From positions 42,238,755 to 42,302,754 of the forward strand of contig CM048853.1 in the NCBI GenBank assembly GCA_026545225.1: a stretch of 64,000 bases of DNA. Reading direction: 5' to 3'. Source of the stretch: Cornus controversa. Its lineage: Eukaryota > Streptophyta > Magnoliopsida > Cornales > Cornaceae. The number at the start of each line of letters is the position of its first letter. The stretch's first letter is position 1. The notes below the pieces were generated by a model, which saw only the letters and a program-made list of their open reading frames with translations, made no database searches and had not been told where the DNA came from. The position numbers and the translations under genes are program-made. Below, piece by piece: positions 4,440 through 54,337 of the stretch.

Positions 4440-4566
4440 TGCTATATATATATATATACACATATATGTTGGTAAGAGAGTTACATGACAGAACCAAGTC
4501 TTTGAAGCATAAACAAAGTTCAATTTTCAGTTTATGTTTTTCCAAGCTCTAACTTCGGCTCTGGAC
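4440..4566 (+). promoter_or_regulatory. Putative TATA region, 5' leader and six-codon uORF of copy A
   Basis: A TATATATATATA run at about 4444-4458 could serve as TATA region. The leader has an ATG at 4485 opening a six-codon frame ending at TGA 4503-4505, out of frame with the main gene. The homologous upstream ATG in copy B (46597) stays open and in frame. An in-frame ATG at 4534 is also possible, but its counterpart in B is out of frame, so the conserved ATG at 4567 is preferred. Confidence 0.45.
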
Positions 4567-7122
4567 ATGTTGCCTTCACTTCCTAGTACTTCAAAAGTTC
4601 CTAACAAGCCCCCTCTTCCTCCACAATCCTCTCGCGATCTACCTGCACTAGTGGTTGACATTCCCTCCATCGAGCTTAGAAAGCCCAGAGGGCGATGGCG
4701 CTATGCTTTTGCAGTAATCTATTCTACTCGTGCTCTACTTTCTCTTGCCAAGGGAATAGTAGCTAATACAACTCATACCATCCTCGACATCAATCCAAGA
4801 ATTGATTACCGCAATTTAAATGATGAAAATCACAACTACAACTTCGAACCAACAAGCCTAGTAAAGATAGTGAAAGAGAAGAACTTTCATCTTCTTCGCC
4901 AGCTAGGAGGAGTAAAAGGCGTAGTAACCAATCTTGAAAGTCATGTTGATAATGGCATCAATGGTGATGATAAAGATGTGAAAAGGCGGCGCGAGGCCTT
5001 TGGTTCAAACACTTGCCACAAGCAGCCTCCAAAGGGCTTTCTTTATTTCTTGTTGGAAGCCTTTAAAGATGCCACTATTATGATCCTTCTGGTATGTGCA
5101 GCCCTATCTCTTTCTTTTGGCATTAAAGAAAATGGAATAAAAGAGGGATGGTATGATGGCGTAAGCATACTCTTCGCTGTCCTTTTGGTTGTTGCTGTAT
5201 CAGCAGTGACTAACTTCAGGCAATCAAGACAATTTGATGAATTGTCCAAAGTTAGTAGCAATATCCAAGTTGAAGTCACAAGAAATGGGAGACCTCAACA
5301 AATCTCCATATTTGATATTTATGTTGGAGATGTGGTGAATTTGAAAATTGGAGATCAAATTCCAGCTGATGGATTGTTCTTGTATGGCTATTCCTTACAA
5401 GTAGATGAATCAAGTATGACAGGAGAGAGTAACCACGTCGAAATTGATGAAAATTTCAATCCATTCTTATTTTCTGGAGCCAAGATAATGAATGGGTATG
5501 CCCGGATGGTTGTCACAGCGGTGGGGATGAACACTTTGTGGGGTGAGATGATGAGCTCCATAAGCCAGGACTCCAAAGAACAAACTCCATTGCAATCTCG
5601 GCTCAACAAATTAACGTCCTCTATAGGAAAGGTAGGTTTGGTTGTTGCTTTTCTTGTTCTTCTTGTGTTGTTAATTCGTTACTTTACAGGGAATACCAAA
5701 GATGAGAATGGAAATCGCGAATTCAATGGTAAAAGTACCAAATTTGACGATGTTATGAATGCCATGGTACGTACTATAGCAGTCGCAGTGACAATTATTG
5801 TTGTGGCAATTCCTGAAGGTTTGCCATTGGCAGTGACACTCACTCTGGCCTATTCCATGAAAAGAATGATGGCTGATCAAGCCATGGTTAGGAAACTCTC
5901 GGCCTGTGAGACAATGGGCTCAGCAACTACCATTTGCACTGACAAAACTGGTACACTTACCATGAATAAAATGAAGGTCACCACATTTGTGCTAGGCAAA
6001 GATCACATTACAGGCAATTTTAATGACATAGTGTCCCTTAATGTTCTAGAATTGCTCTACCAAGGAGTGAGTCAGAACACTACTGCTAATTTTTACAAAG
6101 CCACCAAAGGGTCTGAGCCTGAGTTCTCGGGCAATCCAACTGAGAAAGCTATTCTCTCTTGGGCTGTCCAAGAATTAGACATGGACATTGAAGTATTGAA
6201 ACAAAATTATGTCATCCTCAATGTGGAGACATTCAATTCACGAAAGAAACGAAGTGGGGTTCTGATAAAAAGTAAGGTTGACAACATTTTCCATGTCCAC
6301 TGGAAAGGAGCTGCTGAAATGATCCTAGCTATGTGTTCAAGTTACTATGATAAGTCTGGCATCATCAAAGCCATGGATGATAGTGCAAGAGAGGAAATCA
6401 AGCGAATAATTGAAGGTATTGTTAACCATCATCTACTCTATAAGATATTAGAGAAGGTGCAAATTTATATCCTCTAACATGTCTCTCATGCAGGAGCGGA
6501 GCCAAAAATGCTTTGGGGGGGGGGGAGGTGGTTGGTTGGTGGGTGGTTGCAAATTTTTATCTTTTCTCTACTAATTCATAACAAATAATATATATATTTA
6601 TGTATGTATGTGTGTAAATATATATGAAACTGAATGCAATATTGTTTCAGAACATTTTAATTATTTATCCATAATACACAGAAAAAACAAGCTAAAGAAA
6701 ACAAGGTTAGTATAACAAAACTAATATAATAAACAGAACAATCGAAGCTGAGGACTTGAAGGGGTGATAAGTAATTTCATTTGCAAACCACCATTAACTT
6801 TAATTTTTATATAAAAAATCACCATTAATAACTATAATTTAGTACCATAAAAAAATTCCCCCCATGTTGTTTTGGTCCAACACTTGCAGGGCCGGCTCTG
6901 GGCCTAGGCGGTCGCTTTGGGCCCCCAATTTTGGGGGCCCCAAATTTTAGACTGGGTATGTTACACTAGTATATAAATTGGGCTCATAATAATATATTTC
7001 ATTGGACTTTTATAATTTTAATTCAAAACATTTAATTTATATACTTTAAATTTGGGCTCATAATAATATATTTCATTGGGCCTTATAATTTAAAACCCAA
7101 AACACTTGCCCATATACTTTAA

Positions 7123-7189
<67 letters not shown>

Positions 7190-8941
7190 GTGCGGCTGTC
7201 ACTGCTCACAACTTTATTTATTCTTTAAACTTATATATATATATAAAATATCAATTGCAATTACAGAAGTAACAGAAGTTTCGTGAGTTCGTAACTTTCG
7301 TCTATAGTGGTTCATGATTGATAGAATTTGCACAGATTACACACATCTCTCCCTCTCTCTTGATTGGAGCACTTTAATTGATAATTTTGCCGCTCAAAAT
7401 GTAATACGATCACATTTACTTTGATATGCTCGTGTAAAACTTTTTGTATAAAGGGCCCCTTATTTGAAAGTTCGCTTAGGGCCCCTCAAAAATTTGAGAA
7501 TCTCAGGGCCGGCCCTGAACACCTGTTTCAGTTTTAATTATTAGAACAATGATGTTTGACCTCAAAACCTTACCTGCTCCGAGACAATGTTAAATACCAT
7601 ATACTTTAAAAGTTGAAGTTATCAGAGAAGGTGTAAGTTTAATATTTATATTTTCTAACAGGTATGGCCACAGAAGCACTTCGATGTATTGCATTTGCTC
7701 ATAAAGAAATTATAGAGCCAGAGTCACATTCCATTGATGATGGCAAGACACATATAAAATTAAATGAAGACAGCTTGATTTTCTTAGGCATAGTGGGTTT
7801 GAAGGACCCATGTAGGCCTGGGGTTAGAGGAGCTGTGGAAGTCTGCAAAAAGGCTGGAGTGAACATAAAGATGATCACTGGTGACAATATTTTCACTGCA
7901 AGAGCTATAGCCATTGAATGTGGGATACTTGGATCAGATCAAAGCATACATGACAGTGAAGAAGTAGTAGAAGGTGTAGAATTTCGAAACTATAGCCCGG
8001 AAGAAATGATGGACAGGGTTGAAAAAATTCGAATCATGGCAAGATCTTCCCCACTCGATAAGCTTTTAATGGTCCGGTGCTTGAAGCAGAAAGGCCATGT
8101 TGTGGCAGTCACAGGGGATGGCACAAATGATGCACCTGCTCTAAAAGAAGCCGATGTTGGACTGTCTATGGGCATTCAAGGTACTGAAGTGGCTAAGGAG
8201 AGCTCAGACATTGTCATTTTGGATGACAACTTCACTTCAGTAGTGACTGTTTTGAAATGGGGGAGATGTGTATACAACAATATCCAAAAGTTCATCCAAT
8301 TCCAACTCACTGTCAATATCGCCGCCCTTGTGATCAACTTGGTTGCAGCATGTTCTGCTGGTGAAGTCCCACTAACAGCAGTCCAATTGTTGTGGGTTAA
8401 TCTGATCATGGACACATTGGGGGCTCTAGCTCTGGCCACAGAGAGACCAACTGATGAACTTATGGAGAACAAGCCGGTGGGTCGAGTTGAGCCACTTGTG
8501 ACTAATATCATGTGGAGGAACCTCATTTCTCAAGCACTCTATCAACTCTTGATCCTCTTGATACTTCAATTTAAGGGTCAGTCTATCTTCAATGTGAGCT
8601 TAGAGGTAAAGAACACACTTATCTTTAACACATTTGTTCTTTGCCAAGTCTTCAATGAGTTTAATGCTAGGAAAATGGAGAAGAAGAATGTCTTCAAAGG
8701 GATACACAAGAACAGATTGTTTCTCTGGATTGTGGCACTAACTGTCGTTCTTCAAGTTATAATGGTGGAGTTTTTACAGAAATTTGCAGATACAAAAAGG
8801 TTGAATTGGCTTCAATGGGGTTTGTGCATTGGATTAGCATCAATGTCTTGGCCACTTGGTTGGGTTGTGAAGTGCATACCAGTTCCTGAAAAACCATTTC
8901 TTACCCGTATAAAATGGAAGCTTTTGAGAAGTCCAATTTAG
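4567..8941 (+). CDS. Copy A: plasma-membrane-type autoinhibited Ca2+-ATPase, ACA12/ACA13-like (two exons)
   Basis: P2B Ca2+ pump that uses ATP to export cytosolic Ca2+. Exons are 4567-6415 and 7662-8941, giving 1042 residues (1053 from ATG 4534), close to the usual 1010-1035 of ACA12/13. The N terminus has a calmodulin-binding-like stretch, GRWRYAFAVIYSTRALLSL. Transmembrane helices 1-2 lie around residues 165-215, the actuator motif DESSMTGES follows, then TM3-4 with PEGLPLAVTLTLAYS, the phosphorylated Asp459 in CTDKTGTLT, the nucleotide-binding KGAAEMIL, hinge GDGTNDAPAL, and TM5-10 with NLIMDTLGALALATE. Exon 1 ends after the first base of a Gly codon; exon 2 supplies GT and then ATGGCC, exactly matching the uninterrupted frame of copy C. 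No frameshift or stop is visible. Arabidopsis ACA12 and ACA13 are intronless, so the intron is unusual. Assignment to ACA12 versus ACA13 cannot be made by eye. Confidence 0.93.
6490..6868. mobile_element. Insertion of uncertain class inside the copy A intron
   Basis: Copy B runs directly from CACGTCCCCTCACGTG to TGCCCATGTTTTGG, whereas copy A has about 370 extra bases between the corresponding points. The insert opens with CAGGAGCGGAGCCAAAAATG and a long G run, and ends near AAAAATTCCCCCC. The GGAGCC end motif resembles, in reverse, the right end of the insertion in copy B (CTGGCTCTGTCACTG at 51173-51187). Boundaries and target duplication are not resolved. Confidence 0.45.
6887..7517. mobile_element. 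Non-autonomous hAT element nested in the copy A intron
   Basis: Terminal inverted repeats are CAGGGCCGGCTCTG at the left and, read on the minus strand, CAGGGCCGGCCCTG at the right. They are flanked by 8-bp duplications aacacttg (6879-6886) and aacacctg (7518-7525). The copy B intron has one unduplicated site, GGTCCAACACGTGTTTC, at the homologous point (about 52914-52930). The interior has no transposase frame and includes CT and TA microsatellites at 7134-7188. Confidence 0.9.
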
Positions 8942-14646: not shown

Positions 14647-15513
14647 TGTAGACACATAAATTTTATGATGGTTTAATCACCGTCCAATTGGTCAATAAGT
14701 CAAACAATTTTGATCAATTTAAGTCTACGATTGTGGGTCCCAGCAACAGACACGTGTCAAAATCGTGAAGGTTCAGGCCTTTAAAAAACATGTGTGATAA
14801 TTCAAATTTAAATTTAATTTATTTACATATAAAAGGAGGCAAAATCTCTTTTTATGGAAGTTGGCACAATTAATGGGGAGTTACCAAAATAAACCTCCAC
14901 CCCTTTTGCCTATAAATATAAGGTCACTCTACACATTCAAGGAAGCAGACAGAAGGAGAGGAGGACAGACACAAAGAGTTCAAGAGAACACAAAAGCTCT
15001 GCCAAACCTCTGCCTCAACGAAGACTCGAAGTTCTGAAGACGAAGAACATCAAGCACGCCACACAAGTGCCGTTTTACTTCAAAGATCTTAAGTCCTCGA
15101 AGAATCTGAAGACGAAGAACATCAAGCACGCCACACAAGTGCTGTTCTACTTCAAAGACCTTCAACCTTCGAAGTTCTGAAGACGAAGAGCATCAAGCAC
15201 GCCACACAAGTGCCGTTCTTCTCCAAAGACCTTCAATCCACCGTTCGAGATCAAGCTCTATCGGCCCTCGATCGAAAATCCAGACAAGCCTTCCTCAATC
15301 CTGAAGTTTTGAAGAAAGCTCGTCACTACCGGTTCAAGAACAAGCTTTCGAAGCCCTTGTACCGAAAATCAAGGAGATTGAATCAGAGGAAGATTCTTTA
15401 TTGTAAAAGAATCGACCACAGAGAATTGTACCCCTTTTTCTTAAATTAATAAAATTGACTGTTTGTTCCTCAATTTCGTTCCTAGGTTTTCGGACACGAA
15501 ATTTGTGTGTACA
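14647..15513 (+). repeat. 5' LTR of element 1
   Basis: The LTR has a TATA box TATAAATATA at 14911-14920, downstream of which the transcript probably starts. A 71-72 bp unit containing ATCAAGCACGCCACACAAGT repeats three times between about 15031 and 15235. Small frames through this repeat (Leu/Cys-rich on the minus strand) are artefacts of its near-multiple-of-three period. Confidence 0.93.
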
Positions 15514-15599
15514 AATTTCTGGCACGCCCGGTGGGACCTCTCTGCCTCTCATCTCTATCTCCTTAATCAATTCCTCAAAGATTTTTCTTGCTTGCATCG

Positions 15600-17870
15600 A
15601 TGGCCCCTAAGAAGATTCAACTCGGTCAAGGTTCAAAGAATGTTGGCAAGAACGTTGCCGCTGCAACAACCAACAACTCTCTGGCTAGGAATGTGATGGC
15701 TCCATCAAGTGGTAGCAGCACCTCTATTGGACCAGCAACTCGCAGCAAAACAAAGGCACCTGTTTCTCTAGCACCGAAACAAAGCATGACGGATGTCAAC
15801 TCGACCAAGCCTGCAAGTGCAAAAGCTCGTCATTCATTTATCACTCTCAAGTCCTTGAGGATAATGAACTTCAACAATACGAGTCTTGAAAAAGTTCCTC
15901 CAGTTTCTGAAGGCTCTGTTCCAAAAGACATGTCACCGCGCTCATCTCGCTCTATGTCGGATTCTAATTTGAATACGGGATCACGCTCAGTTTCTTCCCC
16001 TGGATCTCCGAAAGAGTTAATTTCTCTAAAGTACTTAGATTCTCATACACAATCACAATCAACCAATATGCAAGTTATGATGACCGATACAACATCGGTA
16101 GAGGAACAACTTGCGACTATGGCTAGCGCTATTGAAAAGCTCACCAAAACCATTGAAGAAAAAGACTTGCAAATTGCTTCCCTCATGAATAGATTGGAAT
16201 CTCAGAAATCTAAGAAGCCAAGTCAAGAACTCTCACACCCGCCCGATTTTGCACCACAAGGGGCCACAGCAAATAAGGCTTATCATGCAAGCACATCCGA
16301 ACAAAGGGCAAATCATCCCAGTTTTGCTCCCTCTATCGCTTCCTTGTCTGTTCAACAACTTCAAGACATGATCACTAACACAATCAGGTCACAGTATGGC
16401 GGTGTTTCTCAAAGCTCGCTCATGTATTCGAAGCCTTACACAAGACGAATTGACAACATGAGGATGCCAGCTGGGTATCAACCTCCCAAGTTTCAACAAT
16501 TCGATGGAAAGGGCAACCCTAAGCAACACGTCGCTCATTTTGTGGAGACATGCAATAACGCTGGCACCAAAGGGGACCTCTTAGTCAAGCAATTTGTCCT
16601 TTCCCTCAAAGGGAATGCATTTGATTGGTACGCAGACCTCAAAGCTGGGAGTATTGACTGTTGGGAGCAAATAGAGCAAGAGTTTCTCAACCGCTTCTAC
16701 AGTACTCGTAGAATAGTAAGCATGCTAGAACTCACTAACACTAAACAAATGAAGGACGAGCTTGTGGTCGACTATATCAACCGTTGGCGAGCGCTAAGTC
16801 TTGATTGCAAAGATCGTCTTTCTGAAGTCTCAGCAGTCGAAATGTGTATGCAAGGCATGCACTGGGAGTTACTCTACATTCTACAAGGAATCAGGCCTCG
16901 TACATTTGAGGAACTGGTTACTCGTGCCCATGATATGGAGCTCAGCATAACAAGTAGTGGTGAAAAGGTTTTTGCCTTTCCTAATATATCTGATGACTGT
17001 CCTAAAGATGTAGGGGTTGAGTCCAAAGAGGAAGACAAAATACTTATTAACTCGGACAATGAAATAGATACGTCTTATGTCACAAGCGTCGTATCTAAAG
17101 AAATGTATCAAGAAACACATCATATTTCGGTGACTTCATCTGAAGGTTCGCAGTTACATAGTGCATTAAGTCAAGAAAACCTTGGTAGAAGACTGGACAA
17201 ACAGGGGGCAAACCTTCCATACAAAGTTCATTCTCAACTATCTCATATGAAATACTCTTGGCAAGGGAGCAAGGTCCATGCATGTCCTTTAAAAAGACCT
17301 ACACATTTTCTCAAACCTCAAAATAAGAAAGAGGTCTCAAAAAAGGAACAAGAAAAATTAAGGCATAACAAAAGTGACAAATTGCAAAGATTTGCATCAA
17401 AGAAGCATTATGAAGGTAATTCTTCAAATTTTCCTCAAACAACTTCCAATGGAAAGGATCAAAAAATTGTGCTTACTTGGAGGCCAAAGAAGAATGCTCT
17501 TGAAGGGGATGGTTCTAAAAAGATCTCACAGGAATCAGTTGCTGGAAATATACAAATGACAACTCAAGTAATTCCTTCCCAACATGTCATCGACAAGCAC
17601 CAAGGTAAGAGTCTAAAACTGCAAAATGAGGAACAAGAACAAAATCATCTACAATCCCAGATGGAACGAGAGACTCGACAAATCAAAAGACTAGAGGAAG
17701 GGAAAGTGTGGGGACCGAAGCCCGAAGATGCTGTTTGGATCGAATCTCGCAGCGGAATGAAAGCATACTGGGTGAGGTTCAATCCGCCTACATGGACTAT
17801 GACAAATGAAACACCTCTATCTTCTGGGTGGGGAGACGAGTTCAAAGGAGATGTTTCTTCTCAAATGTAA
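15600..17870 (+). CDS. Retrotransposon Gag polyprotein of element 1 (756 residues)
   Basis: Structural Gag-like protein that would package the retrotransposon RNA. Start ATG 15600 is chosen over upstream in-frame non-ATG codons and lies about 85 bp after the 5' LTR. A Lys/Ser-rich N terminus is followed by a likely coiled coil around residues 165-200 (TMASAIEKLTKTIEEKDLQI). The retrotransposon gag core (Retrotrans_gag family) lies around residues 300-450, with motifs FDGKGNPKQHVAHF, LKGNAFDWYADL and FLNRFYSTRR. The long C-terminal extension is Lys/Gln-rich. I see no CCHC zinc knuckle. The frame is intact, consistent with young LTRs. Confidence 0.85.
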   Translation: MAPKKIQLGQGSKNVGKNVAAATTNNSLARNVMAPSSGSSTSIGPATRSKTKAPVSLAPKQSMTDVNSTKPASAKARHSFITLKSLRIMNFNNTSLEKVPPVSEGSVPKDMSPRSSRSMSDSNLNTGSRSVSSPGSPKELISLKYLDSHTQSQSTNMQVMMTDTTSVEEQLATMASAIEKLTKTIEEKDLQIASLMNRLESQKSKKPSQELSHPPDFAPQGATANKAYHASTSEQRANHPSFAPSIASLSVQQLQDMITNTIRSQYGGVSQSSLMYSKPYTRRIDNMRMPAGYQPPKFQQFDGKGNPKQHVAHFVETCNNAGTKGDLLVKQFVLSLKGNAFDWYADLKAGSIDCWEQIEQEFLNRFYSTRRIVSMLELTNTKQMKDELVVDYINRWRALSLDCKDRLSEVSAVEMCMQGMHWELLYILQGIRPRTFEELVTRAHDMELSITSSGEKVFAFPNISDDCPKDVGVESKEEDKILINSDNEIDTSYVTSVVSKEMYQETHHISVTSSEGSQLHSALSQENLGRRLDKQGANLPYKVHSQLSHMKYSWQGSKVHACPLKRPTHFLKPQNKKEVSKKEQEKLRHNKSDKLQRFASKKHYEGNSSNFPQTTSNGKDQKIVLTWRPKKNALEGDGSKKISQESVAGNIQMTTQVIPSQHVIDKHQGKSLKLQNEEQEQNHLQSQMERETRQIKRLEEGKVWGPKPEDAVWIESRSGMKAYWVRFNPPTWTMTNETPLSSGWGDEFKGDVSSQM

Positions 17871-19056
17871 GAAGAGTACAATGAAGAAACAAAGCCAGAA
17901 AGAAATTTTCAAATTGACGCCGAGCTGGTTCACACTTTTCAATGCAAGTTTGGACTGTCTTATGAATCTTGTAGAGTTAAAGAATAGTCAAAGATGGAGT
18001 GCTCTTGATTGCATGAGCCTAAACTGCGCTGCACTCCTGGCCCGCACGAGTATAAACTGTGTACGGCCCAAAAAAAAAAAAAAAAAACTTTTCGAAGTTG
18101 CATGTTATATTATATTCCGAGGGTTTATAGATACATGGAATGGTGTAGGAGAGATGGAGTGGTGTTGGAAGAACTTTTAAAAGGTCTCAAGTTCAAAACC
18201 TTTAAAAAGCAAAAAAAAAAAAATATACATTTTTTATTTTAGGCAACTACACCTTCATGTGAAAAAAAAAAAAAAATTAGAAGAAGAAGAAGTGGCGGCT
18301 AGGAGAAGAAGAGAAAGAAAGAAAAAAAAAAAAAAAGGTGCGTGAGAAGAAGACGAAAAAAAAAAAAAAAAAAGAGAAAAATGAAGCAGAGGCGGCAGGG
18401 AGAGAAGGAAAGAGAGAAAAGAAAGAAAAAAAAAAAAAAAAGAGGAAGAAGAAGAGGCGGCTAGAAGAAGAGAAGAGAAGAAAAAGAAAAAAAAAAGAGA
18501 AAAGAAAGAAGAAAAAAAAGAAAAAAAAAGAGGAAGAAGAACAAGGGCGGCAGGGGAAAAAAAAAAAAAAACTTAACTTACAGTTGTTGGGTGAGTTTCT
18601 GCCAATTTCCTTTCCGTAGCAGTTGGAGGGACTTCTCTCAATTATTCTCTGAAGTGAAAGGTTTATAGCGTGGGCTACATATATATAATGGCGGATTAAT
18701 CCTAGTTGACATAGGATTCTCAAATTTCCAATTCTGTTTGGAAAAAGAAAAAAAAATCCTGTTTCTAATAGAATTCTCAAATTTCCAATTCTGTTTGGAA
18801 AAGAAAAAAAAAATCCTATTTCTAATAGGATTTTTAAATTTTCAATTCTGTTTGGAAAAAAAAAAATCCTATTTCTAATAGGATTCTCAAATTTCCAATT
18901 CTGTTTGGAAAAGAAAAAAAAATCCTATTTCTAATAGGATTCTCAAATTTCCAATTTTGTTTGGACAAAAAAAAAAAAAAAAAAATTAATACTTCAAGTC
19001 CCGCTTTAAAAACGTGACAAGCTCAATATAGCGCGAGACTTGAAGTGGGGGCAATT
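17871..19056 (+). repeat. Non-coding 3' internal region of element 1: purine tract and hairpin array
   Basis: After gag comes an untranslated region with several A runs, then a strongly A/G-rich stretch (about 18255-18575), then five tandem units of about 57 bp at 18690-18985. Units carry the near-palindrome AATCCTATTTCTAATAGGATT, a 9-bp stem with a 3-base loop. The purine tract beside the 3' LTR is at about 19040-19056. Lys-rich or Phe-rich open frames here are composition artefacts. Confidence 0.8.
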
Positions 19057-19923
19057 TGTAGACACATAAATTTTATGATGGTTTAATCACCGTCCAATTG
19101 GTCAATAAGTCAAACAATTTTGATCAATTTAAGTCTACGATTGTGGGTCCCAGCAACAGACACGTGTCAAAATCGTGAAGGTTCAGGCCTTTAAAAAACA
19201 TGTGTGATAATTCAAATTTAAATTTAATTTATTTACATATAAAAGGAGGCAAAATCTCTTTTTATGGAAGTTGGCACAATTAATGGGGAGTTACCAAAAT
19301 AAACCTCCACCCCTTTTGCCTATAAATATAAGGTCACTCTACACATTCAAGGAGGCAGACAGAAGGAGAGGAGGACAGACACAAAGAGTTCAAGAGAACA
19401 CAAAAGCCCTGCCAAACCTCTGCCTCAACGAAGACTCGAAGTTCTGAAGACGAAGAACATCAAGCACGCCACACAAGTGCCGTTTTACTTCAAAGATCTT
19501 AAGTCCTCGAAGAATCTGAAGACGAAGAACATCAAGCACGCCACACAAGTGCTGTTCTACTTCAAAGACCTTCAACCTTCGAAGTTCTGAAGACGAAGAG
19601 CATCAAGCACGCCACACAAGTGCCGTTCTTCTCCAAAGACCTTCAATCCACCGTTCGAGATCAAGCTCTATCGGCCCTCGATCGAAAATCCAGACAAGCC
19701 TTCCTCAATCCTGAAGTTTTGAAGAAAGCTCGTCACTACTGGTTCAAGAACAAGCTTTCGAAGCCCTTGTACCGAAAATCAAGGAGATTGAATCAGAGGA
19801 AGATTCTTTATTGTAAAAGAATCGACCACAGAGAATTGTACCCCTTTTTCTTAAATTAATAAAATTGACTGTTTGTTCCTCAATTTCGTTCCTAGGTTTT
19901 CGGACACGAAATTTGTGTGTACA
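19057..19923 (+). repeat. 3' LTR of element 1
   Basis: Same 867-bp length as the 5' LTR. The three differences I counted are at 14944 versus 19354, 14998 versus 19408, and 15330 versus 19740. Confidence 0.93.
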
Positions 19924-21299: not shown

Positions 21300-21984
21300 T
21301 AATGAAAAGTTTAGCAAGTGCAATTATTTAATTTTTTTCTTCTTTTTTTTTAACCTCGGAAAAAAACTCACTCTCACATGCCAACTTGTACCCTTTTGAG
21401 GAAGAACCACTTGTAGGTAATTATCTAATTAAACTCACTCTCACATGCCAACTTGTACCCTTTTGAGGAAGAACCACTTGTAGGTAATTATCTAATTTTA
21501 TTATCCAGTTAATGCCTAAAGAAAGAACTTATTTGCAAATCTCTTAATAGTCAAAAGTCTCTTGTTTGTTTTCTTTTTGGGTAAAGTGCGGAAAACACCT
21601 TACGATATACCGTTTGTGCAAGATAACTCTCTACTTTTTAAAATGAGTGATGTCAGTCTCTAATTTTACAAAAATGTGCATATACCACGCTCTGACCATT
21701 TTTTTGACATAAATTGAATGTATTATTCTAATTTTACCCTTTTAAATGCCCAAAATGTCCCTCTTCTCTATACATTTCTCTCTCAGAAGCATTTTGTCCC
21801 TCTCACATAAACTTGGAAGTTTGCTCTTCAAGCTTGATCTTTTTTCTTTTTTCTTTCCCGAATAAGCTTGCACCAATTTTTAATTCTAGTGACCCGTCAA
21901 TCGAACAAATCATTGTTGTATGTTAGCTTGTTTTCTAGTTATGCCATTAGCGGAGATTTTATTGTGACAGTATATGCATAAATC

Positions 21985-22024
<40 letters not shown>

Positions 22025-22480
22025 GGAGGAGGTAATTAAAGTAAACAACTCCGAAAATCAATAGATTATGAACAAGAAGGTAAGGGGTATATTAAAGGGA
22101 AAGTCCAATGATCATAAGAAGAGGAGGCTGATAGAGATGCCATCGTTAGGCGACGCCATGAATGGCTTGATCGCCAACAAGGCGGTGGCGGTGGCGGCAC
22201 CACTAAGTTACTAGATCGATGTTGGTAACTGCATGACCTACACGTGCCACCATGCGCGTGTGGAATTACAATGACCCAAAGTGGGTCTTCTTCTTCATCA
22301 TGCACTAATAACCCATCTGATGGCCCCATATCAAGCTTCAGCTTTAGTCTATGGAGATACCCAATTACTCTTTCGAACTTTCAATATAGTTTCAATACCC
22401 TCCAATTCGCCCACCATTATCCTGAATCAGATTCTTTAATTTTAATCATTGCTAAAACTATAGTTTCTAAGACTAACAAG
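21300..22480. repeat. Direct duplication upstream of copy C, unit 1
   Basis: This unit and 24516-25650 match over roughly 1.15 kb, from TTTAGCAAGTGCAATTATTT to CTAAAACTATAGTTTCTAAG. Unit 1 has an extra internal tandem doubling of a 67-bp phrase at about 21366-21500. Both units hold a (TA)n run followed by AGGAGGTAATTAAAGTAA and a short open frame. Confidence 0.85.
22068..22214 (+). CDS. Possible small open frame (48 codons) in duplication unit 1
   Basis: A Lys/Arg-rich start is followed by the segment PSLGDAMNGLIANKAVAV. The second unit has a matching 45-codon frame. The indels between the copies near 22130 and 22190 are 3 and 6 bases, so the frame is kept. I do not recognise the family; a minus-strand frame is also kept open because the same indels preserve it. 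Both copies share a second short in-frame extension after the TAG, ending at the same TGA. It could be a small peptide, an exon fragment or chance. Confidence 0.25.
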   Translation: MNKKVRGILKGKSNDHKKRRLIEMPSLGDAMNGLIANKAVAVAAPLSY

Positions 22481-24943: not shown

Positions 24944-24989
<46 letters not shown>

Positions 24990-25170
24990 GAAGCATTTTC
25001 TCCCTCTCATATAAACCAAGCTTGATCTTTTTTCTTTTTTCTTTCCCGAACAAGCTTGCACCAATTTTTAATTCTGGTGACCCGTCAATCGAACAAATCA
25101 TTATTGTATGTCAGCTTGTTTTCTAGTTATGCCATTAGCGGAGATTTTACTGTGACAATATATGTAGAAA

Positions 25171-25205
<35 letters not shown>

Positions 25206-25829: not shown

Positions 25830-26274
25830 TGGATGGTTTTTCGCACTTTACCCTTTCATTTTTCTTTCTTTTTAAGTTCAGGAATGTTCTTTGCACATTC
25901 AGACTGCTTGCTTTATCAGAATATATATATATATATATATAGAAAGAGAGAGAGAGTGATAGAGAGGGATGAACTACCTCTCTTCTTCAACAAGATGTAC
26001 ATGATGGTGTGGCGTCCTAATCCTGAGAAGACCTACATTCAATGCAGAGACCACGAAACTACAGTGAAATTTCATAAAAGCGCGTTTTAAAACTTCTATT
26101 TAAGCAACAATAACTAAATTACATCACATATAAATCTCTTCTCTATTCATACGTACCACAAAAGACTAAATCGGGACACTCTCTTGCTCTCTATTCAACC
26201 TGTTTTCCAAATCTTGTTCTTGTTCTTCTTTACCTTTCATGCCTCATAACTCCTCTCAACACATTGATACAATC
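25830..26274 (+). promoter_or_regulatory. Promoter and leader of copy C, conserved with that of copy D
   Basis: The stretch from about 25870 to 26274 aligns with 63430-63769 upstream of copy D. Shared marks include TTCAGGAA.GTTCTTTGCA, a TATCAGAATAT phrase, a GA-rich microsatellite, CAGAG.CCACGAA near 26044 and 63543, and a TATTTAAGCAA / TATATAAGCAA box near 26097 and 63583. That box is the best TATA candidate for both genes. An upstream ATG at 26239 is in frame in C but has no counterpart in D. Confidence 0.55.
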
Positions 26275-29200
26275 ATGTTCAAGGACAAAGATTGCTCCAT
26301 TGTGAGACCCCAAAAACGATTACAATTGGCTTTCAGGGCCATATACTTCATAGTTTCTTTGTCCAAGAAGGCTTTTAAGAACACCCGAATTCTCACCAAT
26401 GTCATTCATAGCCCACCATACCTGGCAATTAATATCCAATCCACCAATGAAGACGACAATGAAGACGATCACGTGCCCTTTCTAACCATCGACAAGAAGG
26501 CACTTGCCGACCTAGTTAAGGAGCGAGACATTGATGGTCTCCATCAATATGGAGGAGTGAAAGAAGTTGCAGCCATTCTTGAAACAGATGGGAAGTTCGG
26601 TATCAGTGGCAACAATGGTGATACCAAGCAGAGAATCGATGTGTTCGGCTCCAACACATACCAGAAGCCTCCGGCAAAAAGCTTCATCAGTTTTGTCGTC
26701 GAAGCATTCAAAGATACAACAATTATCATACTTCTGGTATGTGCAGTTCTCTCTCTTGGCTTTGGGATTAAGCAGCATGGCCTCAAGGAAGGGTGGTATG
26801 ATGGAGGGAGCATCATTGTTGCTGTTGTGTTAGTTGTTGCAGTCTCTGCTATCAGTAACTTCAAGCAGAGCAGACAGTTTGAGAAACTGTCCGAGGAGAG
26901 CAGTGACATAGCAGTGGAAGTAGTGAGAGACGGGCGGCGACAACCCATATCAATCTTTGAAGTCGTTGTGGGTGACGTTGCATGTTTGAATATTGGTGAT
27001 CAGATTCCTGCAGACGGATTGTTCTTGGATGGTCACTCGTTGAAGGTGGATGAATCTAGCATGACCGGTGAAAGTGATCATGTTGAAGTCAATGAGGCCA
27101 CAAATCCGTTTCTGCTTTCTGGTACAAAGGTGACGGATGGCTATGGTCACATGCTTGTCACTGCAGTAGGTATGAACACAGCATGGGGCCAGATGATGAG
27201 CTCCATAAGCCGTGATTTGGATGAGGAGACACCATTGCAAGTCCGCCTCAACAAGCTGACTTCTTATATCGGGAAGATCGGTTTGTTCGTGGCTTTTCTC
27301 GTTCTCGCAGTTTTGGTGATTCGTTACTTCACAGGACACACTGAAGACCAAAGCGGGCACCGCGAATTCAATGGCAGCAAGACCAAAGCTGATGAGATCA
27401 TGAATGCCATGGTGCGTATCATTGCTGCAGCAGTTACAATAGTTGTGGTGGCAATCCCAGAGGGTTTGCCTTTGGCTGTTACTCTGACTCTGGCTTATTC
27501 CATGAAGAAAATGATGGCTGACAATGCCATGGTCAGGAAACTCTCTGCCTGTGAGACGATGGGTTCAGCTACAACAATCTGCACAGACAAAACAGGCACG
27601 CTTACATTAAACCAGATGAAGGTCACTGAGTTTTGGCTGGGAAAAGAGGAAGCGAAAGACAGAACATCATCAGAACTAGCCCCAAATTTTCTTGAATTGC
27701 TACAAGAAGGTATTGGTTTAAATACAACAGGAGAAGTTTATAGACCAGTATCTACATCAACTCCTGAGATTTCTGGTAGTCCAACTGAGTCGGCCATTCT
27801 CTCTTGGGCCGTGTTTGAGTTGAATATGGATCTTGATGAAATAAAGCAAGTTAATGAAATTCTCCACGTAGAAGCTTTCAATTCGGAGAAGAAACGAAGC
27901 GGGGTTCAGGTGAGAAGAAAAGGTGGAGAGAGATTTCATACACACTGGAAGGGAGCTGCAGAGATGATTCTCGCAATGTGCTCAAATTATTACGTGAGAA
28001 GCGGGATAATCATAGCAATGGATGATTCAGAGAGAACGCAGTTTGAAACAATTATTAAAGATATGGCAGCTAAAAGCCTGCGATGCATCGCTTTTGCATA
28101 CAAAAAAGTCGGAGGAGAAAGTTTACAGGGCAATGAAAAGCTCGAAGAAGCCGAACTGACATTATTAGGGCTGGTGGGGTTGAAGGACCCATGTCGGCCA
28201 GGTGTTGGAGCAGCAGTACAGTCATGCAGGGATGCTGGAGTTGACATCAAAATGATCACCGGAGACAATATGTTCACTGCAAAAGCTATAGCTATTGAAT
28301 GTGGTATTCTCAAACGCAATGACAATTCAAATGATGCAGTAGTAGAAGGTGAAACATTCAGAAATTACTCACAAGAAGAGAGAATGTTGAAGGTTGAGTC
28401 TATCCGTGTATTGGCCAGATCATCCCCGTTTGACAAGCTTCTGATGGTGCAATGTTTGAAGCAGAAAGGGCACGTGGTAGCAGTCACAGGCGATGGAAAC
28501 AATGATGCGCCCGCACTCAAAGAAGCAGATATTGGGCTCTCCATGGGGATCCAAGGCACAGAAGTGGCAAAAGAGAGCTCCGATATAGTCATCTTGGATG
28601 ATAATTTCACCTCTTTGGTGACAGTTTTGAGGTGGGGCAGGTGTGTGTACAACAATATTCAAAAGTTCATCCAATTTCAACTCACAGTCAATGTCGCTGC
28701 CCTAGTCATCAACTTTGTTGCTGCACTATCATCTGGTGAAGTCCCACTTACAGCAGTCCAGCTGTTGTGGGTAAATCTCATTATGGACACTTTGGGAGCT
28801 TTAGCCTTGGCCACTGAGCAACCCACTAATGATGTCATGAAGAACCCACCTGTGGGTCGAACTGAACCTCTTATAACAAGAGTCATGTGGAGGAACTTAA
28901 TTGCTCAGGCCTTGTATCAGGTCACCGTTTTGCTGATCTTGGAGTTCAAGGGAAGGTCTATCTTTCACGTGAACGAGAAGGTCAAGGACACCCTCATTTT
29001 CAATAGTTTTGTTCTCTGCCAAATTTTTAATGAGTTTAATGCGCGGAAGCTGGAGAAGAAGAATGTATTTAAGGGGATACTGAAGAACAAATTGTTTCTA
29101 TGGATTGTTGGGATAACAGTAGTTCTTCAAGTGGTTATGGTGGAGCTTCTCAAGAGGTTTGCTAATACTGAAAGGCTGAATTGGGGCCAATGGGGTGCAT

Positions 29201-29292
29201 GCATTGGGATTGGTGCATTGTCATGGCCAATTGGTTGGCTTGTCAAGTATATTCCAGTCTCCAGTGAACACTTTCTCAGACTTCCAACATAA
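26275..29292 (+). CDS. Copy C: plasma-membrane-type autoinhibited Ca2+-ATPase, ACA12/ACA13-like (single exon)
   Basis: Intronless P2B Ca2+ pump of 1005 residues (1017 from ATG 26239). ATG 26275 is preferred because copy D has only that start. Order of parts: basic N terminus KRLQLAFRAIYFIVSLSKK at about residues 13-31; TM1-2 around 140-195; actuator motif DESSMTGES; PEGLPLAVTLTLAYS in TM4; phosphorylated Asp438 in CTDKTGTLT; KGAAEMIL; hinge GDGNNDAPAL with Asn742 where A and B have Thr; TM5-6 with NLIMDTLGALALATE; TM10 near the C terminus. The N-terminal stretch lacks the Trp seen in A and B. Frame is uninterrupted, including at the codon where A and B carry their intron. Likely function is Ca2+ efflux at the plasma membrane; relatives in Arabidopsis are linked to defence and pollination, which this sequence alone cannot show. 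Confidence 0.94.
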   Translation: MFKDKDCSIVRPQKRLQLAFRAIYFIVSLSKKAFKNTRILTNVIHSPPYLAINIQSTNEDDNEDDHVPFLTIDKKALADLVKERDIDGLHQYGGVKEVAAILETDGKFGISGNNGDTKQRIDVFGSNTYQKPPAKSFISFVVEAFKDTTIIILLVCAVLSLGFGIKQHGLKEGWYDGGSIIVAVVLVVAVSAISNFKQSRQFEKLSEESSDIAVEVVRDGRRQPISIFEVVVGDVACLNIGDQIPADGLFLDGHSLKVDESSMTGESDHVEVNEATNPFLLSGTKVTDGYGHMLVTAVGMNTAWGQMMSSISRDLDEETPLQVRLNKLTSYIGKIGLFVAFLVLAVLVIRYFTGHTEDQSGHREFNGSKTKADEIMNAMVRIIAAAVTIVVVAIPEGLPLAVTLTLAYSMKKMMADNAMVRKLSACETMGSATTICTDKTGTLTLNQMKVTEFWLGKEEAKDRTSSELAPNFLELLQEGIGLNTTGEVYRPVSTSTPEISGSPTESAILSWAVFELNMDLDEIKQVNEILHVEAFNSEKKRSGVQVRRKGGERFHTHWKGAAEMILAMCSNYYVRSGIIIAMDDSERTQFETIIKDMAAKSLRCIAFAYKKVGGESLQGNEKLEEAELTLLGLVGLKDPCRPGVGAAVQSCRDAGVDIKMITGDNMFTAKAIAIECGILKRNDNSNDAVVEGETFRNYSQEERMLKVESIRVLARSSPFDKLLMVQCLKQKGHVVAVTGDGNNDAPALKEADIGLSMGIQGTEVAKESSDIVILDDNFTSLVTVLRWGRCVYNNIQKFIQFQLTVNVAALVINFVAALSSGEVPLTAVQLLWVNLIMDTLGALALATEQPTNDVMKNPPVGRTEPLITRVMWRNLIAQALYQVTVLLILEFKGRSIFHVNEKVKDTLIFNSFVLCQIFNEFNARKLEKKNVFKGILKNKLFLWIVGITVVLQVVMVELLKRFANTERLNWGQWGACIGIGALSWPIGWLVKYIPVSSEHFLRLPT

Positions 29293-49600: not shown

Positions 49601-52600
49601 ATTTTACATTATACCTGTCCCTTGAACATTGGTTTACTTGTACGCAAAAATATAATTCAATGACACAAATAAATAAAATATATTAAAGAAATTATTATAC
49701 GTCTATAAAAATTCATAAAAATATCTAATAAAAGTCTATATTATTTTTTGACATATATTACTTAATCATTCTTCGCATTATTATGAGAATTGATATATGC
49801 AATTTTGTATAAATTCTTAATAATTATATTGAATAACTCCAAATAACTTTGGTTTACTTGTACGCAAAAATATAATTTAATTATACAAATAAATAAAATA
49901 TATTAAAGAAATCATTATACGTCCATAAAAATTTATCAAAATTTCTAATAAAAGTCTATAGAAATTAAAATTTACAAAAATTCATAAAAATTTTAAAAAA
50001 ATTTTCAAAATTCTTTAAAATCGTAATCGAATAAACGCCCCTAAAATTGAAATGACGTAAAACATTGTTGTTTTGGTCTCCATGGCCCATTTTCCATAGT
50101 TACTCTCTCTCTCTCATTCTATCGACAAGGAGATCGAACTAGATTTCTATGGTTTGGTGCCTTCTAATCGAAGTACAAAAATATTCGAGGTCTACAGAGA
50201 CGGGACACCTCTGTCCAGTGTAAGCCATGGCCGCCGGTGGTCGACTTAGCCACCAGCGCCGTCGAATCTCTCAAGTCGCCGCCATTGGCTAGCACTGTCA
50301 ATTGGTACTTTTTTCAATCATAGGCTGATAGCATACTCAGTTCCTATATATATATATATATATATATATTACTTAATTGAATGATTTATGTTATTTTCTA
50401 GTGAGTGACATTGATTAATTGCTGGCTTAAGCTATACATGAAAACACCAATTGCAGAGTTTCGTCCCTCCTTATTATATTGAAATTGATTATTTTGCTGG
50501 TTCATTACTACTATAGCTTTCGTTGCTATTGCTGCCTTAAAAATGGTCTAACATTTCACTTATGTGTAATTTTGGAATTAAGTGATTTGATCCATAGAAG
50601 ACCTTTCTTTCATATGTTTCTTTTGAAATATTTTTCTATTGGGGTCTTTCTTTTCTTTTCTTGATCTGCCATGTTATACATATACACGTATATCTATATA
50701 CACACAAGTATATGTACATGGAGGAGATTTGGACTCGTAGCTTGTTTACCTCTTTTTCTAAACTTGTTTATTGTTTCTCTAATCTATTAATTTTTTATTC
50801 TTACGTCTGGTTTCTTGGATATGGGTTGACGAACGATTTTTTAAAATTGTCTTTATCACCTTGGTATATCAAAAAATTCTAAGATTAATCATATCAAATT
50901 TGCGAGTTGTCAATTTCTATTTATCTTTTTAAATTAAAATTTTTTTGAGTATACATGATTCTTGCTAGCATTCTTTTATTTTGGAATACTTTTAATATGT
51001 TAACTTGATAGTAATTGAAATGAAAGCATTTATTGAAAAAAATGATTGAAATAGAAGTATGAGCAATTTTTAATAAAAATATTAATTAATGTCAAAATTC
51101 TTTTGTTTATTATTGTAGTTTGAAAATCTTTTACTTATTGTTGTTTAAGGTTGCGCTGTTTCAAATCATTTTCTGGCTCTGTCACTGAATCAAAGTATTG
51201 ATCATTTCACTTTAAATGATCAAAATCACCACTACCGCATCGAACCAACAAGCCTAGTAAAGATAGTGAAGGAGAAGAACTTTGATCTTCTTCGCCAGCT
51301 CGGAGGGGTAAAAGGCATAGTGACCAATCTTGAAAGTCATGTTGATAATGGAATCAATGGGGATGATGAAGATGTGAAAAGGCGACGCAATGCCTTTGGT
51401 TCAAATACTTACCACAAACCACCTCCAGAAAGCTTTCTTCATTTCTTGCTGGAAGCCTTAAAAGATGCCACTATTGTTATCCTTCTGATATGTGCAGCTC
51501 TTTCTCTTGCTTTTGGCATTAAAGAAAATGGGATAAAAGAAGGTTGGTATGATGGCACGAGCATACTCTTCGCTGTCCTTTTGGTTGTTGCTGTATCAGC
51601 AGTGACTAACTACAGGCAATCAAGACAATTTGATGAATTGTCCAAAGTTAGTAACAATATTCAAATTGAAGTCACAAGAAATGGAAGGCCTCAACAAATC
51701 TCCATATTTGATATTTTAGTTGGAGATGTGGTGAATTTGAAAATTGGAGATCAAATTCCAGCTGATGGTTTGTTCTTGAATGGCTATTCCTTACAAGTAG
51801 ACGAGTCAAGCATGACAGGAGAGAGTAACCACGTCGAAATTGATGAAAATGTCAATCCATTCTTATTTTCTGGAGCCAAGATAGCGAATGGGTATGCCCG
51901 GATGGTTGTCACATCAGTGGGGATGAACACTTTGTGGGGTGAGATGATGAGCTCCATAAGCCATGACTCCAAAGAGCAAACTCCATTACAATATCGACTC
52001 AATAAATTAACTTCCTCTATCGGAAAGGTTGGTTTGGTTGTTGCTTTTCTTGTTCTTCTCGTTTTGTTAATTCGTTACTTCACAGGAAATACCAAAAATG
52101 AGAATGGAAATCGCGAATTCAATGGTAAAAGTACCAGATTCGATGATGTTATGAATGCCATGGTACATATTATAGCAGCTGCAGTGACAATTATTGTTGT
52201 GGCAATTCCTGAAGGTTTGCCATTGGCAGTGACACTCACACTGGCCTATTCCATGAAAAAAATGATGGCTGATCAAGCAATGGTTAGGAAACTCTCAGCC
52301 TGTGAGACAATGGGCTCAGTAACTACCATTTGCACCGACAAAACTGGTACACTTACCATGAATAAAATGAAGGTGACCACATTTGTCCTAGGCAAAGATC
52401 ACATTACAGGCAATTTTAGTGACATAGTTTCCCTTAACATTCTTGAGTTGCTCTACCAAGGAGTGAGTCAGAACACTACTGCTAGTCTTTACAAAGCCAC
52501 CAAAGGGTCTGAGCCCGAGTTCTCGGGCAATCCAACTGAGAAAGCTATTCTCTCTTGGGCTGTCCAAGAATTAGACATGGACATTGAAGAATTGAAACAA

Positions 52601-54337
52601 AATTATGTCATCCTCAATGTGGAGACATTCAATTCACAAAAGAAACGAAGTGGGGTTCTGATAAAAAGTAAGGTTGACAACACTTTCCATGTCCACTGGA
52701 AAGGAGCTGCTGAAATGATACTAGCTATGTGTTCAAGTTACTATGATAAGTCTGGCATCATCAAAGCCATGGATGATGGCGAGAAAGAGGAAATCAAGCG
52801 AATAATTGAAGGTATAGTTACCCGTCATCTACTTTGTAACTTAAGTTATTGTAGAAGGTGTAACTTTAATATTTATATCCTTTAACACGTCCCCTCACGT
52901 GTGCCCATGTTTTGGTCCAACACGTGTTTCAATTTTAATTATTAGGGTGACAGCGAGATTTGAATTCAGGACCTTGCCTGCTATGATACAATGTTAATTA
53001 TCATCTACTTTAAGCTATTAGAGAAAGTGTAACTTTAATATTTATATTTTCTAACAGGTATGGCCGCAGAAGCCCTTCGATGTATTGCATTTGCTCATAA
53101 AGAAATTATAGATCTAGAGTCACATTACATTGATGATGGCAAGATACATATAAAATTAAATGAAGACAACTTGATTTTCTTAGGCATAGTGGGTTTGAAG
53201 GACCCATGTAGGCCTGGGGTGAGAAGAGCCGTGCAAGTCTGCAAAAAGGCTGGAGTGAACATAAAGATGATCACCGGTGACAACATTTTCACTGCAAGAG
53301 CTATAGCCATTGAATGTGGGATACTTGGATCAGATCAGAGCATACATGACAGTGAAGAAGTAATAGAAGGTGTAGAATTTCGAAACTATACCCCGGATGA
53401 GAGGATGGCCTGTGTTGAAAAAATTCGCATCATGGCAAGATCTTCCCCCCTTGATAAGCTTTTAATGGTCCAGTGCTTGAAGCAAAAAGGCCATGTTGTT
53501 GCAGTCACAGGGGATGGCACAAATGATGCACCGGCTCTAAAAGAAGCCGATGTTGGACTGTCTATGGGCATTCAAGGCACTGAAGTGGCTAAGGAGAGCT
53601 CAGACATTGTCATTTTGGATGACAACTTCACTTCAGTAGTGACTGTTTTGAAATGGGGAAGATGTGTATACAACAATATCCAAAAGTTCATCCAATTCCA
53701 ACTCACTGTCAATGTCGCCGCCCTTGTGATCAACTTGGTTGCAGCATGTTCTGCTGGTGAAGTCCCACTAACAGCAGTCCAATTGTTGTGGGTTAATCTG
53801 ATTATGGACACATTAGGGGCTCTAGCTCTGGCCACAGAGAGACCAACTGATGAACTCATGGAGAACAAGCCAGTGGGTCGAGTTGAGCCACTAGTGACTA
53901 ATATCATGTGGAGGAACCTCATTTCCCAAGCACACTATCAAATCTTTATCCTCTTGATACTTCAATTTAAAGGACAGTCTATCTTCAATGTGAGCTTAGA
54001 GGTAAAGAACACACTAATCTTTAACACATTTGTTCTTTGCCAAGTCTTCAACGAGTTTAATGCTAGAAAAATGGAGAAGAAGAATGTCTTCAAAAGGATA
54101 CACAAGAACAGGTTGTTTCTCTGGATTGTGGCACTAACTGTTGTTCTTCAAGTTATAATGGTGGAGTTTTTACAGAATTTTGCAGATACAAAAAGGTTGA
54201 ATTGGCTGCAATGGGGTTTGTGCATTGGATTAGCATCAATGTCTTGGCCACTTGCTTGGGTTGTAAAGTGCATACCAGTTCCTGAAAAACCATTTCTTAC
54301 CTATGTAAAATGGAAGCCCTTGAGAAGTCCAATTTAG
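46675..54337 (+). CDS. Copy B: plasma-membrane-type autoinhibited Ca2+-ATPase, ACA12/ACA13-like, first exon split by a 4.3 kb insertion
   Basis: Close paralogue of copy A; I count about 25 differences over the last 425 residues. Proposed exons are 46675-46921, 51150-52811 and 53058-54337 (1062 residues). The N terminus keeps the Trp-containing KRRWRYAFAVIYSTRALLSL. DESSMTGES, PEGLPLAV, CTDKTGTLT (Asp codon 52337), KGAAEMIL, GDGTNDAPAL and NLIMDTLGALALATE are intact, and no other frame break is visible. The first intron is a transposon inserted in coding sequence; its AG|GTAAGT donor and TTTAAG|GT acceptor match in phase and would add about 16 transposon-derived residues before TM1. If not spliced this way, the gene is broken after about 79 residues. 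The second intron is the same miniature LTR element as in copy A. Confidence 0.75.
47357..47760. repeat. GAGCTC-rich direct repeats
   Basis: TATGACAAGTTGT.GGAAC.TAATAA starts two units at about 47358 and 47580, each followed by AGCTCGGGCTCGGGCTTG-like text. It is probably internal transposon sequence; no gene. Confidence 0.55.
47905..50043. mobile_element. Putative terminal-inverted-repeat element nested in the copy B insertion
   Basis: The left end, GGGTGTTTTCAATTAGAATT with a following AAAAGACTTTAAAAA, is an imperfect inverse of the right end (minus strand GGGGCGTTTATTCGATTACG, then TTTTAAAGAATTTTGAAAA). Arms extend about 40 bp at roughly 70 percent by eye. Target duplication is unresolved. 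Inside, a unit of about 280 bp is tandemly repeated at 49468-49960 (GAATAACTCCAAATAAC, GGTTTACTTGTACGCAAAAA). A related one-sided end lies at 61745-61850. Confidence 0.5.
50044..51149. other. Right part of the copy B insertion
   Basis: A less AT-rich patch at 50090-50300 includes ATGGCCGCCGGTGGTCGAC and a 21-codon frame; it could be captured host DNA but I cannot identify it. The rest is AT-rich with a (TA)n run at 50346-50370. Confidence 0.35.
52816..53056 (-). mobile_element. Miniature LTR retrotransposon (TRIM/SMART class) forming the second intron of copy B
   Basis: Total 241 bp, flanked by GGTAT at 52811-52815 and 53057-53061. Terminal repeats are 52816-52887 (72 bp) and 52992-53056 (65 bp) around a 104-bp interior. 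The outer end of the first repeat has decayed from TG to AG. On the minus strand, TTGTATCATAGC after the LTR matches 10 of 12 bases of the initiator tRNA-Met primer site TGGTATCAGAGC, and GTGAGGGGACG precedes the other LTR as a purine tract. This is the clean version of the element expanded in copy A. Confidence 0.87.

What the first reader, a model, noticed from the sequence alone, without database searches (positions are those of the whole stretch)
6415..7665. Intron of a Ca2+-pump gene born from a miniature LTR retrotransposon, with splice sites made by its target-site duplication
Seen: the copy A intron lies exactly between two GGTAT duplications and consists of a TG...CA element with short terminal repeats. 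The GT of the left GGTAT is the donor. The element's terminal CA plus the first G of the right GGTAT makes the CAG acceptor. Removing GT...AG takes out the element plus one duplication and restores the codons gaa-ggt-atg. Copy B has the same arrangement (52811-53061); copy C is uninterrupted there. Known: SMART/TRIM elements are tiny plant LTR elements with 5-bp duplications, and ACA12/13 genes are normally intronless. Inference: any such element ending in CA and landing on a GGT-type target could become a near-seamless intron at once.
Basis: partly seen in the sequence, partly recalled or inferred. Interest (0 to 1): 0.92.

Follow-up and report, generated by a model that had tools for sequence, protein, structure and literature searches.

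The report
Plant intron born from tiny retrotransposon
In a dogwood-like plant, a jumping element of about 240 bases landed in the coding part of a calcium-pump gene and very probably became a clean intron, because the short repeat made on landing, together with the element's own end, formed the splice signals.

Summary
In copy A (6416-7661) and copy B (52812-53057) the intron is one 5-bp duplication (GGTAT) plus a TRIM-like miniature LTR element; in B nothing else is left over. The element lies antisense to the gene. In B it is 241 bp, with repeats of 72 and 65 bp beside a degenerate tRNA-iMet primer site. The left duplication supplies AG|GTAT; the element's final CA plus the first G of the right duplication makes CAG. 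Removing GT...AG restores GAA-GGT-ATG.

No RNA was available, so splicing is inferred. A and B share the insertion, then diverged (dS 0.12-0.18). Over 967 compared codons there is no indel and no stop; dN/dS is 0.26 before and 0.23 after the site. At 184 conserved downstream codons each copy has 1 change; 25.6 are expected if neutral. Unspliced, the frames stop after 19 and 23 further residues.

Tempering points: the donor matches 6 of 9 consensus positions, and copy C is a distant paralog without the GGTAT target.

Introners that take a donor from their target duplication, and splicing of exonic LTR elements, are known. A retained TRIM-born intron in a land plant looks like a new variant.

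The parts
4534..6415 (+). Copy A, coding part before the intron (exon 1), Ca2+-ATPase of ACA12/13 type
   Evidence: Open frame; Pfam P-type ATPase domains in 4534-6474
6415..6419 (+). Left target-site duplication GGTAT, copy A; holds the donor GT at 6416-6417
6416..7661 (+). Proposed intron of copy A (GT...AG, 1246 bp)
6420..6479 (-). Left terminal repeat of the element, copy A (60 bp; 3' LTR in the element's own direction)
6492..6865 (.). Nested insertion in copy A, class not determined; borders approximate, set by eye against copy B
6887..7517 (.). Nested hAT-like element in copy A with inverted ends CAGGGCCGGC(T/C)CTG and 8-bp duplication at 6879-6886 and 7518-7525
7576..7587 (-). Degenerate tRNA-iMet primer-binding site next to the repeat, copy A (9 of 12)
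   Evidence: the reference 12-mer is recalled
7588..7660 (-). Right terminal repeat, copy A (73 bp; 5' LTR in the element's own direction); its end gives the T-rich tract and CA of the acceptor
7661..7665 (+). Right target-site duplication GGTAT, copy A; its first G completes the acceptor CAG
7662..8941 (+). Copy A, coding part after the intron (exon 2)
51188..52811 (+). Copy B, coding part before the intron that aligns with A; the N-terminal part at 46675-46910 is parted from it by a 4.3-kb insertion
52811..52815 (+). Left target-site duplication GGTAT, copy B
52812..53057 (+). Proposed intron of copy B (GT...AG, 246 bp)
52816..53056 (-). TRIM-like element, copy B (241 bp), antisense to the gene
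52816..52887 (-). Left terminal repeat, copy B (72 bp)
52980..52991 (-). Degenerate tRNA-iMet primer-binding site, copy B (10 of 12)
   Evidence: the reference 12-mer is recalled
52992..53056 (-). Right terminal repeat, copy B (65 bp)
53057..53061 (+). Right target-site duplication GGTAT, copy B
53058..54337 (+). Copy B, coding part after the intron (exon 2)
26239..29292 (+). Copy C, uninterrupted paralog, 65-67% identical in protein; reads GATAT where A and B have GGTAT

Best explanation
A TRIM-type miniature LTR retrotransposon inserted, antisense, into the coding exon of an ACA12/13-type Ca2+-ATPase gene at GAAGGTATGG, before copies A and B were duplicated. Integration duplicated GGTAT. The left duplication keeps an exonic AG|GTAT that serves as donor. 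The reversed start of the LTR (TTTATATTTTCTAACA), a T-rich tract ending in CA, meets the first G of the right duplication and gives the acceptor CAG|GT. The spliceosome then removes the element plus one duplication, and the protein is unchanged. Shown: anatomy, duplications, restored frame, common origin of the insertion in A and B, constraint on both halves afterwards. Inferred: that splicing uses exactly these sites, and that it worked well enough from the start for the insertion to survive.
For: Intron B is exactly duplication plus element, 5 + 241 = 246 bp. Removal restores GAAGGTATGG in both copies. The two left repeats share CC where the two right repeats share TT, so A and B descend from one insertion. 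Repeat divergence within a copy (K2P 0.193 in A, 0.200 in B) is larger than between copies for the same repeat (0.150 left, 0.117 right). After the split: 0 indels and 0 stops in 967 compared codons; dN/dS 0.26 (0.17-0.39) over 541 codons before the site and 0.23 (0.13-0.41) over 425 after it. At codons at least 99% conserved among 116 of the 120 listed homologs, A and B each changed at 1 of 184 downstream (25.6 expected per copy if neutral) and at 1 of 161 upstream (32.4 expected). Unspliced, the frames stop after 19 (A) and 23 (B) more residues (ORF ends). The proposed acceptor ties for the highest T content among 21 Y-AG sites in intron A and 6 in intron B and is the only C-AG at that level.
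Against: No RNA evidence. The donor matches 6 of 9 consensus positions, as do 20 of 170 GTs of the coding sequence at 6 or more. A T-AG site ties with the acceptor in T content in each intron. Over a longer stretch (133 aligned positions) A and B elements differ by K2P 0.190, as much as the repeats within a copy, so the repeat-based order of insertion and duplication is noisy. A change to no constraint in the last 15-19% of the time since the split cannot be excluded. Copy B carries a further 4.3-kb insertion in its N-terminal coding part. The first 86 codons of A have no counterpart in the A/B comparison for that reason.
Confidence: 0.87

Rival explanations
1. The insertion killed the gene: A and B are pseudogenes disrupted by a TRIM, and the good frame is a relic.
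For: No transcript evidence. Both copies carry further insertions: nested elements in the A intron and a 4.3-kb insertion in the B coding part.
Against: After the shared insertion both copies kept 967 codons without indel or stop and a dN/dS of about 0.25. At conserved downstream codons each has 1 change against 25.6 expected. The intron itself shows at least 4 indel events in about 192 aligned bp, counted by eye.
Confidence: 0.07
2. An older intron already sat at this codon; the TRIM landed in it and the old sequence was lost.
For: TRIM-like elements are found in existing introns far more than in exons: of 262 SMART sequences in rice, 74 lay in introns and 3 in exons (PMC3281118, passages read).
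Against: In B no base of the intron lies outside duplication plus element, and both duplications straddle the exon edges. ACA12/13 are intron-less in Arabidopsis and one-exon in soybean (passages).
Confidence: 0.03
3. The gene was split: the two halves are made as separate proteins, the second from the ATG at 7664 or 53060.
For: Each second half is an open frame that starts with an ATG right at the junction.
Against: The cut falls inside the catalytic hydrolase domain: the second half holds only profile positions 78-191 of 191 in A and 85-191 in B. The ATG is the ordinary Met of GGT-ATG, also present in the Nyssa, Camellia and Cornus P0001 proteins at that place.
Confidence: 0.02

Closest known systems
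Introners (PMC9860276, passages read)
   Same: A transposable element makes an intron; in one type (their Fig. [quoted passage not shown] That is the geometry here.
   Different: Those are repeated families of similar introns, mostly with signs of DNA transposition, and none was found there in land plants. Here the element is LTR-type, the host a land plant, and a single insertion event is seen.
New ONSEN (LTR) insertions in Arabidopsis (PMC12112155, section 2.3 and passages read)
   Same: A full-length LTR element in an exon was spliced out whole.
   Different: Fresh laboratory insertions of a large autonomous element; one exonic case, named AT5G32415 in the results and AT4G34215 in the discussion; other exonic insertions gave chimeric transcripts; no role of the duplication in the splice sites in the passages seen.
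Drosophila 412 in vermilion (1990) and maize Dissociation (1994)
   Same: Exonic transposon removed by splicing; 412 is an LTR element (recalled).
   Different: Seen only as reference titles in PMC2586383; splice sites not checked here.
SMART / TRIM elements in plants (PMC3281118 and PMC4717578, passages read)
   Same: Small non-coding LTR elements with 5-bp duplications, enriched in genes; some altered exon-intron structure (11 genes in the SMART study).
   Different: The passages seen describe insertion into existing introns, altered exons and recruitment as exons, not a new intron with splice sites made by the duplication. The smallest size given is 292 bp; this copy is 241 bp.

Membership tests
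TRIM (miniature LTR retrotransposon) | Direct terminal repeats around a short internal part, under 1 kb, no coding capacity | tested here: met
   72 and 65 bp repeats in a 241-bp element, copy B. The longest open frame around it is copy B's own, ending at 52885 (minimum 150 aa).
TRIM (miniature LTR retrotransposon) | TG...CA ends | tested here: met
   Met in copy A; in B one end has mutated.
TRIM (miniature LTR retrotransposon) | 5-bp target-site duplication (4-6 bp in PMC4717578) | tested here: met
   GGTAT on both sides in A and B.
TRIM (miniature LTR retrotransposon) | Primer-binding site directly inside the 5' repeat | tested here: met
   9 of 12 (A) and 10 of 12 (B) against the recalled tRNA-iMet site, adjacent to the repeat. 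Degenerate.
TRIM (miniature LTR retrotransposon) | Polypurine tract before the 3' repeat | tested here: inconclusive
   By eye GAGGGGACG before the repeat in B and GAGAGACA in A (sequences); short and not statistically tested.
TRIM (miniature LTR retrotransposon) | Multi-copy family in the genome | tested here: inconclusive
   Within the window only the A and B copies, from one insertion. The genome search did not complete.
Introner | Intron created by a transposable element, length-neutral to the mRNA, with a splice site from the target duplication | tested here: met
   By sequence; splicing itself is inferred.
Introner | Several similar introns of one family at unrelated sites in one genome | tested here: inconclusive
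   Only one insertion event in the 64-kb window; genome not searchable. Not filed as an Introner.
ACA12/ACA13-type plasma-membrane Ca2+-ATPase | P-type cation ATPase domains and closest relatives of that name | tested here: met
   Pfam domains; best two of 7652 matches are Cornus florida ACA12-like proteins at 89% and 86%.

The most novel reading that the evidence does not exclude
Plant TRIMs act as rare land-plant introners: any TG...CA element with a 5-bp duplication that lands on GGTNN, AGGTN, NAGGT or NNAGG in an exon can yield a length-neutral GT...AG intron, so that a detectable share of lineage-specific plant introns, above all in otherwise intronless genes, are TRIM or other LTR insertions at such targets.
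Probability: 0.2. Interest if true: 0.85.

Novelty: new variant of a known kind. Interest (0 to 1): 0.57.

Why it matters
Where new introns come from is an old question, and a survey of 3,325 genomes reported no Introners in land plants (PMC9860276, passages). Here the steps are still legible in sequence: target, duplication, element, splice signals, unchanged reading frame, and constraint afterwards. The case also gives a simple rule that can be counted in any plant genome: in copy A's coding sequence 44 of 3158 positions are GGTNN and 108 of 3158 fit one of the four length-neutral target types.

Tried and rejected
Other copies of the element in the window: only A and B matched at E up to 1e-3.

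RNA family in the copy B intron (52700-53200, E up to 1): one match, SCARNA7, 13.5 bits against a threshold of 65, E 0.34; taken as chance.

Helenus (TRIM with a tRNA-like sequence in its LTR; PMC10886601, outline with abstract and passages read) as the family: no tRNA match in that stretch, so not supported.

Copy C as an empty-site control: set aside, too distant and without the target.

Independent insertions in A and B: rejected on the shared repeat-specific bases and identical site.

Structure prediction, PDB searches and scans of viral or prokaryote collections were not used: they do not bear on splicing.

Papers: 10 searches. In the rows listed I saw no report of a TRIM whose target duplication makes the splice sites of an established plant intron. 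Most papers in those listings I saw only as title and start of abstract; 12 were opened, for passages or single sections. Three of them bore little on the point: PMC4902974 and PMC9312197 and PMC9456015. PMC11782384 reports direct repeats near the borders of all 213 introns it examined, so a repeat alone is weak evidence; here the whole element fills the intron. The library holds openly licensed papers only, and the first TRIM paper (PNAS 2001) is not held; from recall, its abstract says TRIMs affect intron-exon structure.
Full report
What is there. The coordinates of the finding are right. Copy A has GGTAT at 6415-6419 and 7661-7665, copy B at 52811-52815 and 53057-53061. Between them lies an element with direct terminal repeats: 60 and 73 bp in A (10 mismatches in 60 aligned positions), 72 and 65 bp in B (11 in 65) (the B slices there were each one base too long). 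In B the element is 241 bp and the GT...AG intron 246 bp: one duplication plus the element and nothing else. In A the same element has grown to 1241 bp by nested insertions. One is a hAT-like element at 6887-7517 with inverted ends and the 8-bp duplication AACACTTG/AACACCTG. The other lies at about 6492-6865 and was not classified.

Element class and orientation. On the minus strand the right-hand repeat is followed directly by a 12-mer that matches the plant tRNA-iMet primer-binding site at 9 (A) and 10 (B) of 12 positions (the site itself is recalled). Before the other repeat there is a short purine-rich stretch (by eye). Orientation matters: in gene direction intron B is 38.6% T against 28.1-28.3% in the exons of A, and the reversed LTR start TTTATATTTTCTAACA forms the 3' splice region. 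PMC4717578 (passage) gives 292 bp as the smallest TRIM; at 241 bp this copy is smaller, though it is old and has small indels.

How the splice sites arise. The empty site reads GAAGGTATGG. With the insertion the left side reads GAAG|GTAT then the element, and the right side reads TTCTAACA then G|GTATGG. Donor GT and acceptor G come from the duplicated target; the T-rich tract and CA come from the element. Removal restores GAA-GGT-ATG. By T content in the 17 positions before the site, the proposed acceptor ties for first among 21 Y-AG sites in intron A and 6 in intron B (listed second behind a T-AG in each) and is the only C-AG at that level. The donor is mediocre: 6 of 9 consensus positions in both copies; 20 of 170 GTs in copy A's coding sequence reach 6 or more.

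Is it spliced? There is no RNA. The test was selection after the insertion. A and B share it: the two left repeats have CC where the two right repeats have TT. Divergence between the repeats of one copy is K2P 0.193 (A) and 0.200 (B); between copies it is 0.150 for the left repeat, 0.117 for the right, but 0.190 over 133 positions of the right half. The order insertion first, duplication second therefore rests mainly on the shared bases and the identical site. After the split, 541 codons before the site have dN 0.046, dS 0.177, ratio 0.26 (0.17-0.39); 425 codons after it have dN 0.028, dS 0.120, ratio 0.23 (0.13-0.41); 967 compared codons hold no indel and no stop. The first 86 codons of A were not compared, because B carries an insertion there. 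Using 116 of the 120 listed homologs, 184 downstream codons are at least 99% conserved: A changed at 1 and B at 1, with 25.6 expected per copy if neutral; upstream 1 and 1 of 161, with 32.4 expected. At most about 15-19% of the time since the split could have been free of constraint. The aligned intron has at least 4 indel events in about 192 bp (by eye) and diverges about as fast as synonymous sites. Unspliced, the frames stop at 6477 and 52885, after 19 and 23 further residues, inside the catalytic hydrolase domain; the rest of that domain and the C-terminal membrane domain lie downstream. Selection on the downstream half therefore requires that it be translated, most simply by splicing.

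Host and gene. The best matches are two Cornus florida ACA12-like proteins (89% and 86%); Nyssa sinensis follows among full-length ones at 76%. The window most likely comes from Cornus or a near relative. A and B group together (support 0.96) beside the two C. florida proteins, whose own grouping is weak (0.53). Whether C. florida has the intron cannot be seen from proteins. ACA12 and ACA13 are called intron-less in Arabidopsis (PMC5920303, passages); soybean GmACA12/13 have one exon (PMC9161174, passages).

Against the reading. Splicing is inferred. The donor is not strong. Copy B has a 4.3-kb insertion (46911-51187) in its N-terminal coding part; two GT-AG pairs would bridge it in frame, one with donor GAG|GTAAGT at 46922, but that is unproven. 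Copy C is a weak control. The 120 listed database proteins include no product of A or B itself; the best is 89% identical to A.

What is known. Introners whose donor comes from the target duplication and whose acceptor is borne by the element are described, for example in a dinoflagellate, and that survey found none in land plants (PMC9860276, passages). A new ONSEN insertion in an Arabidopsis exon was spliced out whole, while exonic insertions most often gave chimeric transcripts (PMC12112155). Drosophila 412 in vermilion and maize Ds are older cases, seen here only as titles. TRIM surveys report insertion in introns, altered gene structure and recruitment as exons (passages). In the rows of the ten searches made, nothing describes a TRIM whose duplication makes the splice sites of an established plant intron. 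It works like an Introner; it is not shown to be one, since only one insertion event was seen.

General rule (derived by going through the offsets, not a tool result). With TG...CA ends and a 5-bp duplication, a length-neutral GT...AG intron needs a target GGTNN, AGGTN, NAGGT or NNAGG. In copy A's coding sequence 44 of 3158 positions are GGTNN and 108 of 3158 fit any of these; in copy C 52 and 133 of 3050. The fit is thus not rare; recognition by the spliceosome and survival of the insertion must be limiting. The source genome could not be searched to count such cases.

Verdict. Observation confirmed; interpretation supported, with donor strength and the role of copy C toned down; new variant of a known kind.

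Noticed in passing
window 63690-64000: Start of a further ACA-type gene, 84% identical over 318 aligned positions to the start region of copy C, running off the window end; the pump genes form a cluster.
   Followed up: partly
window 46911-51187: 4.3-kb insertion in the N-terminal coding part of copy B, flanked by AATCCAAG/AATCAAAG. Two GT-AG pairs would bridge it in frame, one with donor GAG|GTAAGT at 46922 and acceptor at 51149; possibly a second insertion-born intron.
   Followed up: partly
window 6887-7517: Non-coding hAT-like element nested in the copy A intron, absent from copy B, so younger than the duplication.
   Followed up: yes
window 14647-19923: LTR retrotransposon with 868-bp repeats 99.7% identical, GTGCT on both sides and a gag domain at 15588-17867: a recent insertion between copies A and C.
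   Followed up: partly
window 37864-42256: Pair of 252-bp direct repeats 99.2% identical around a gag frame at 38458-39657 and a block of repeats at about 39822-41087; likely another LTR element, no 5-bp duplication seen in the flanks printed.
   Followed up: partly
window 21431-22472 and 24580-25652: Direct repeats of about 1 kb, 87% identical; possibly an old LTR element.
   Followed up: no
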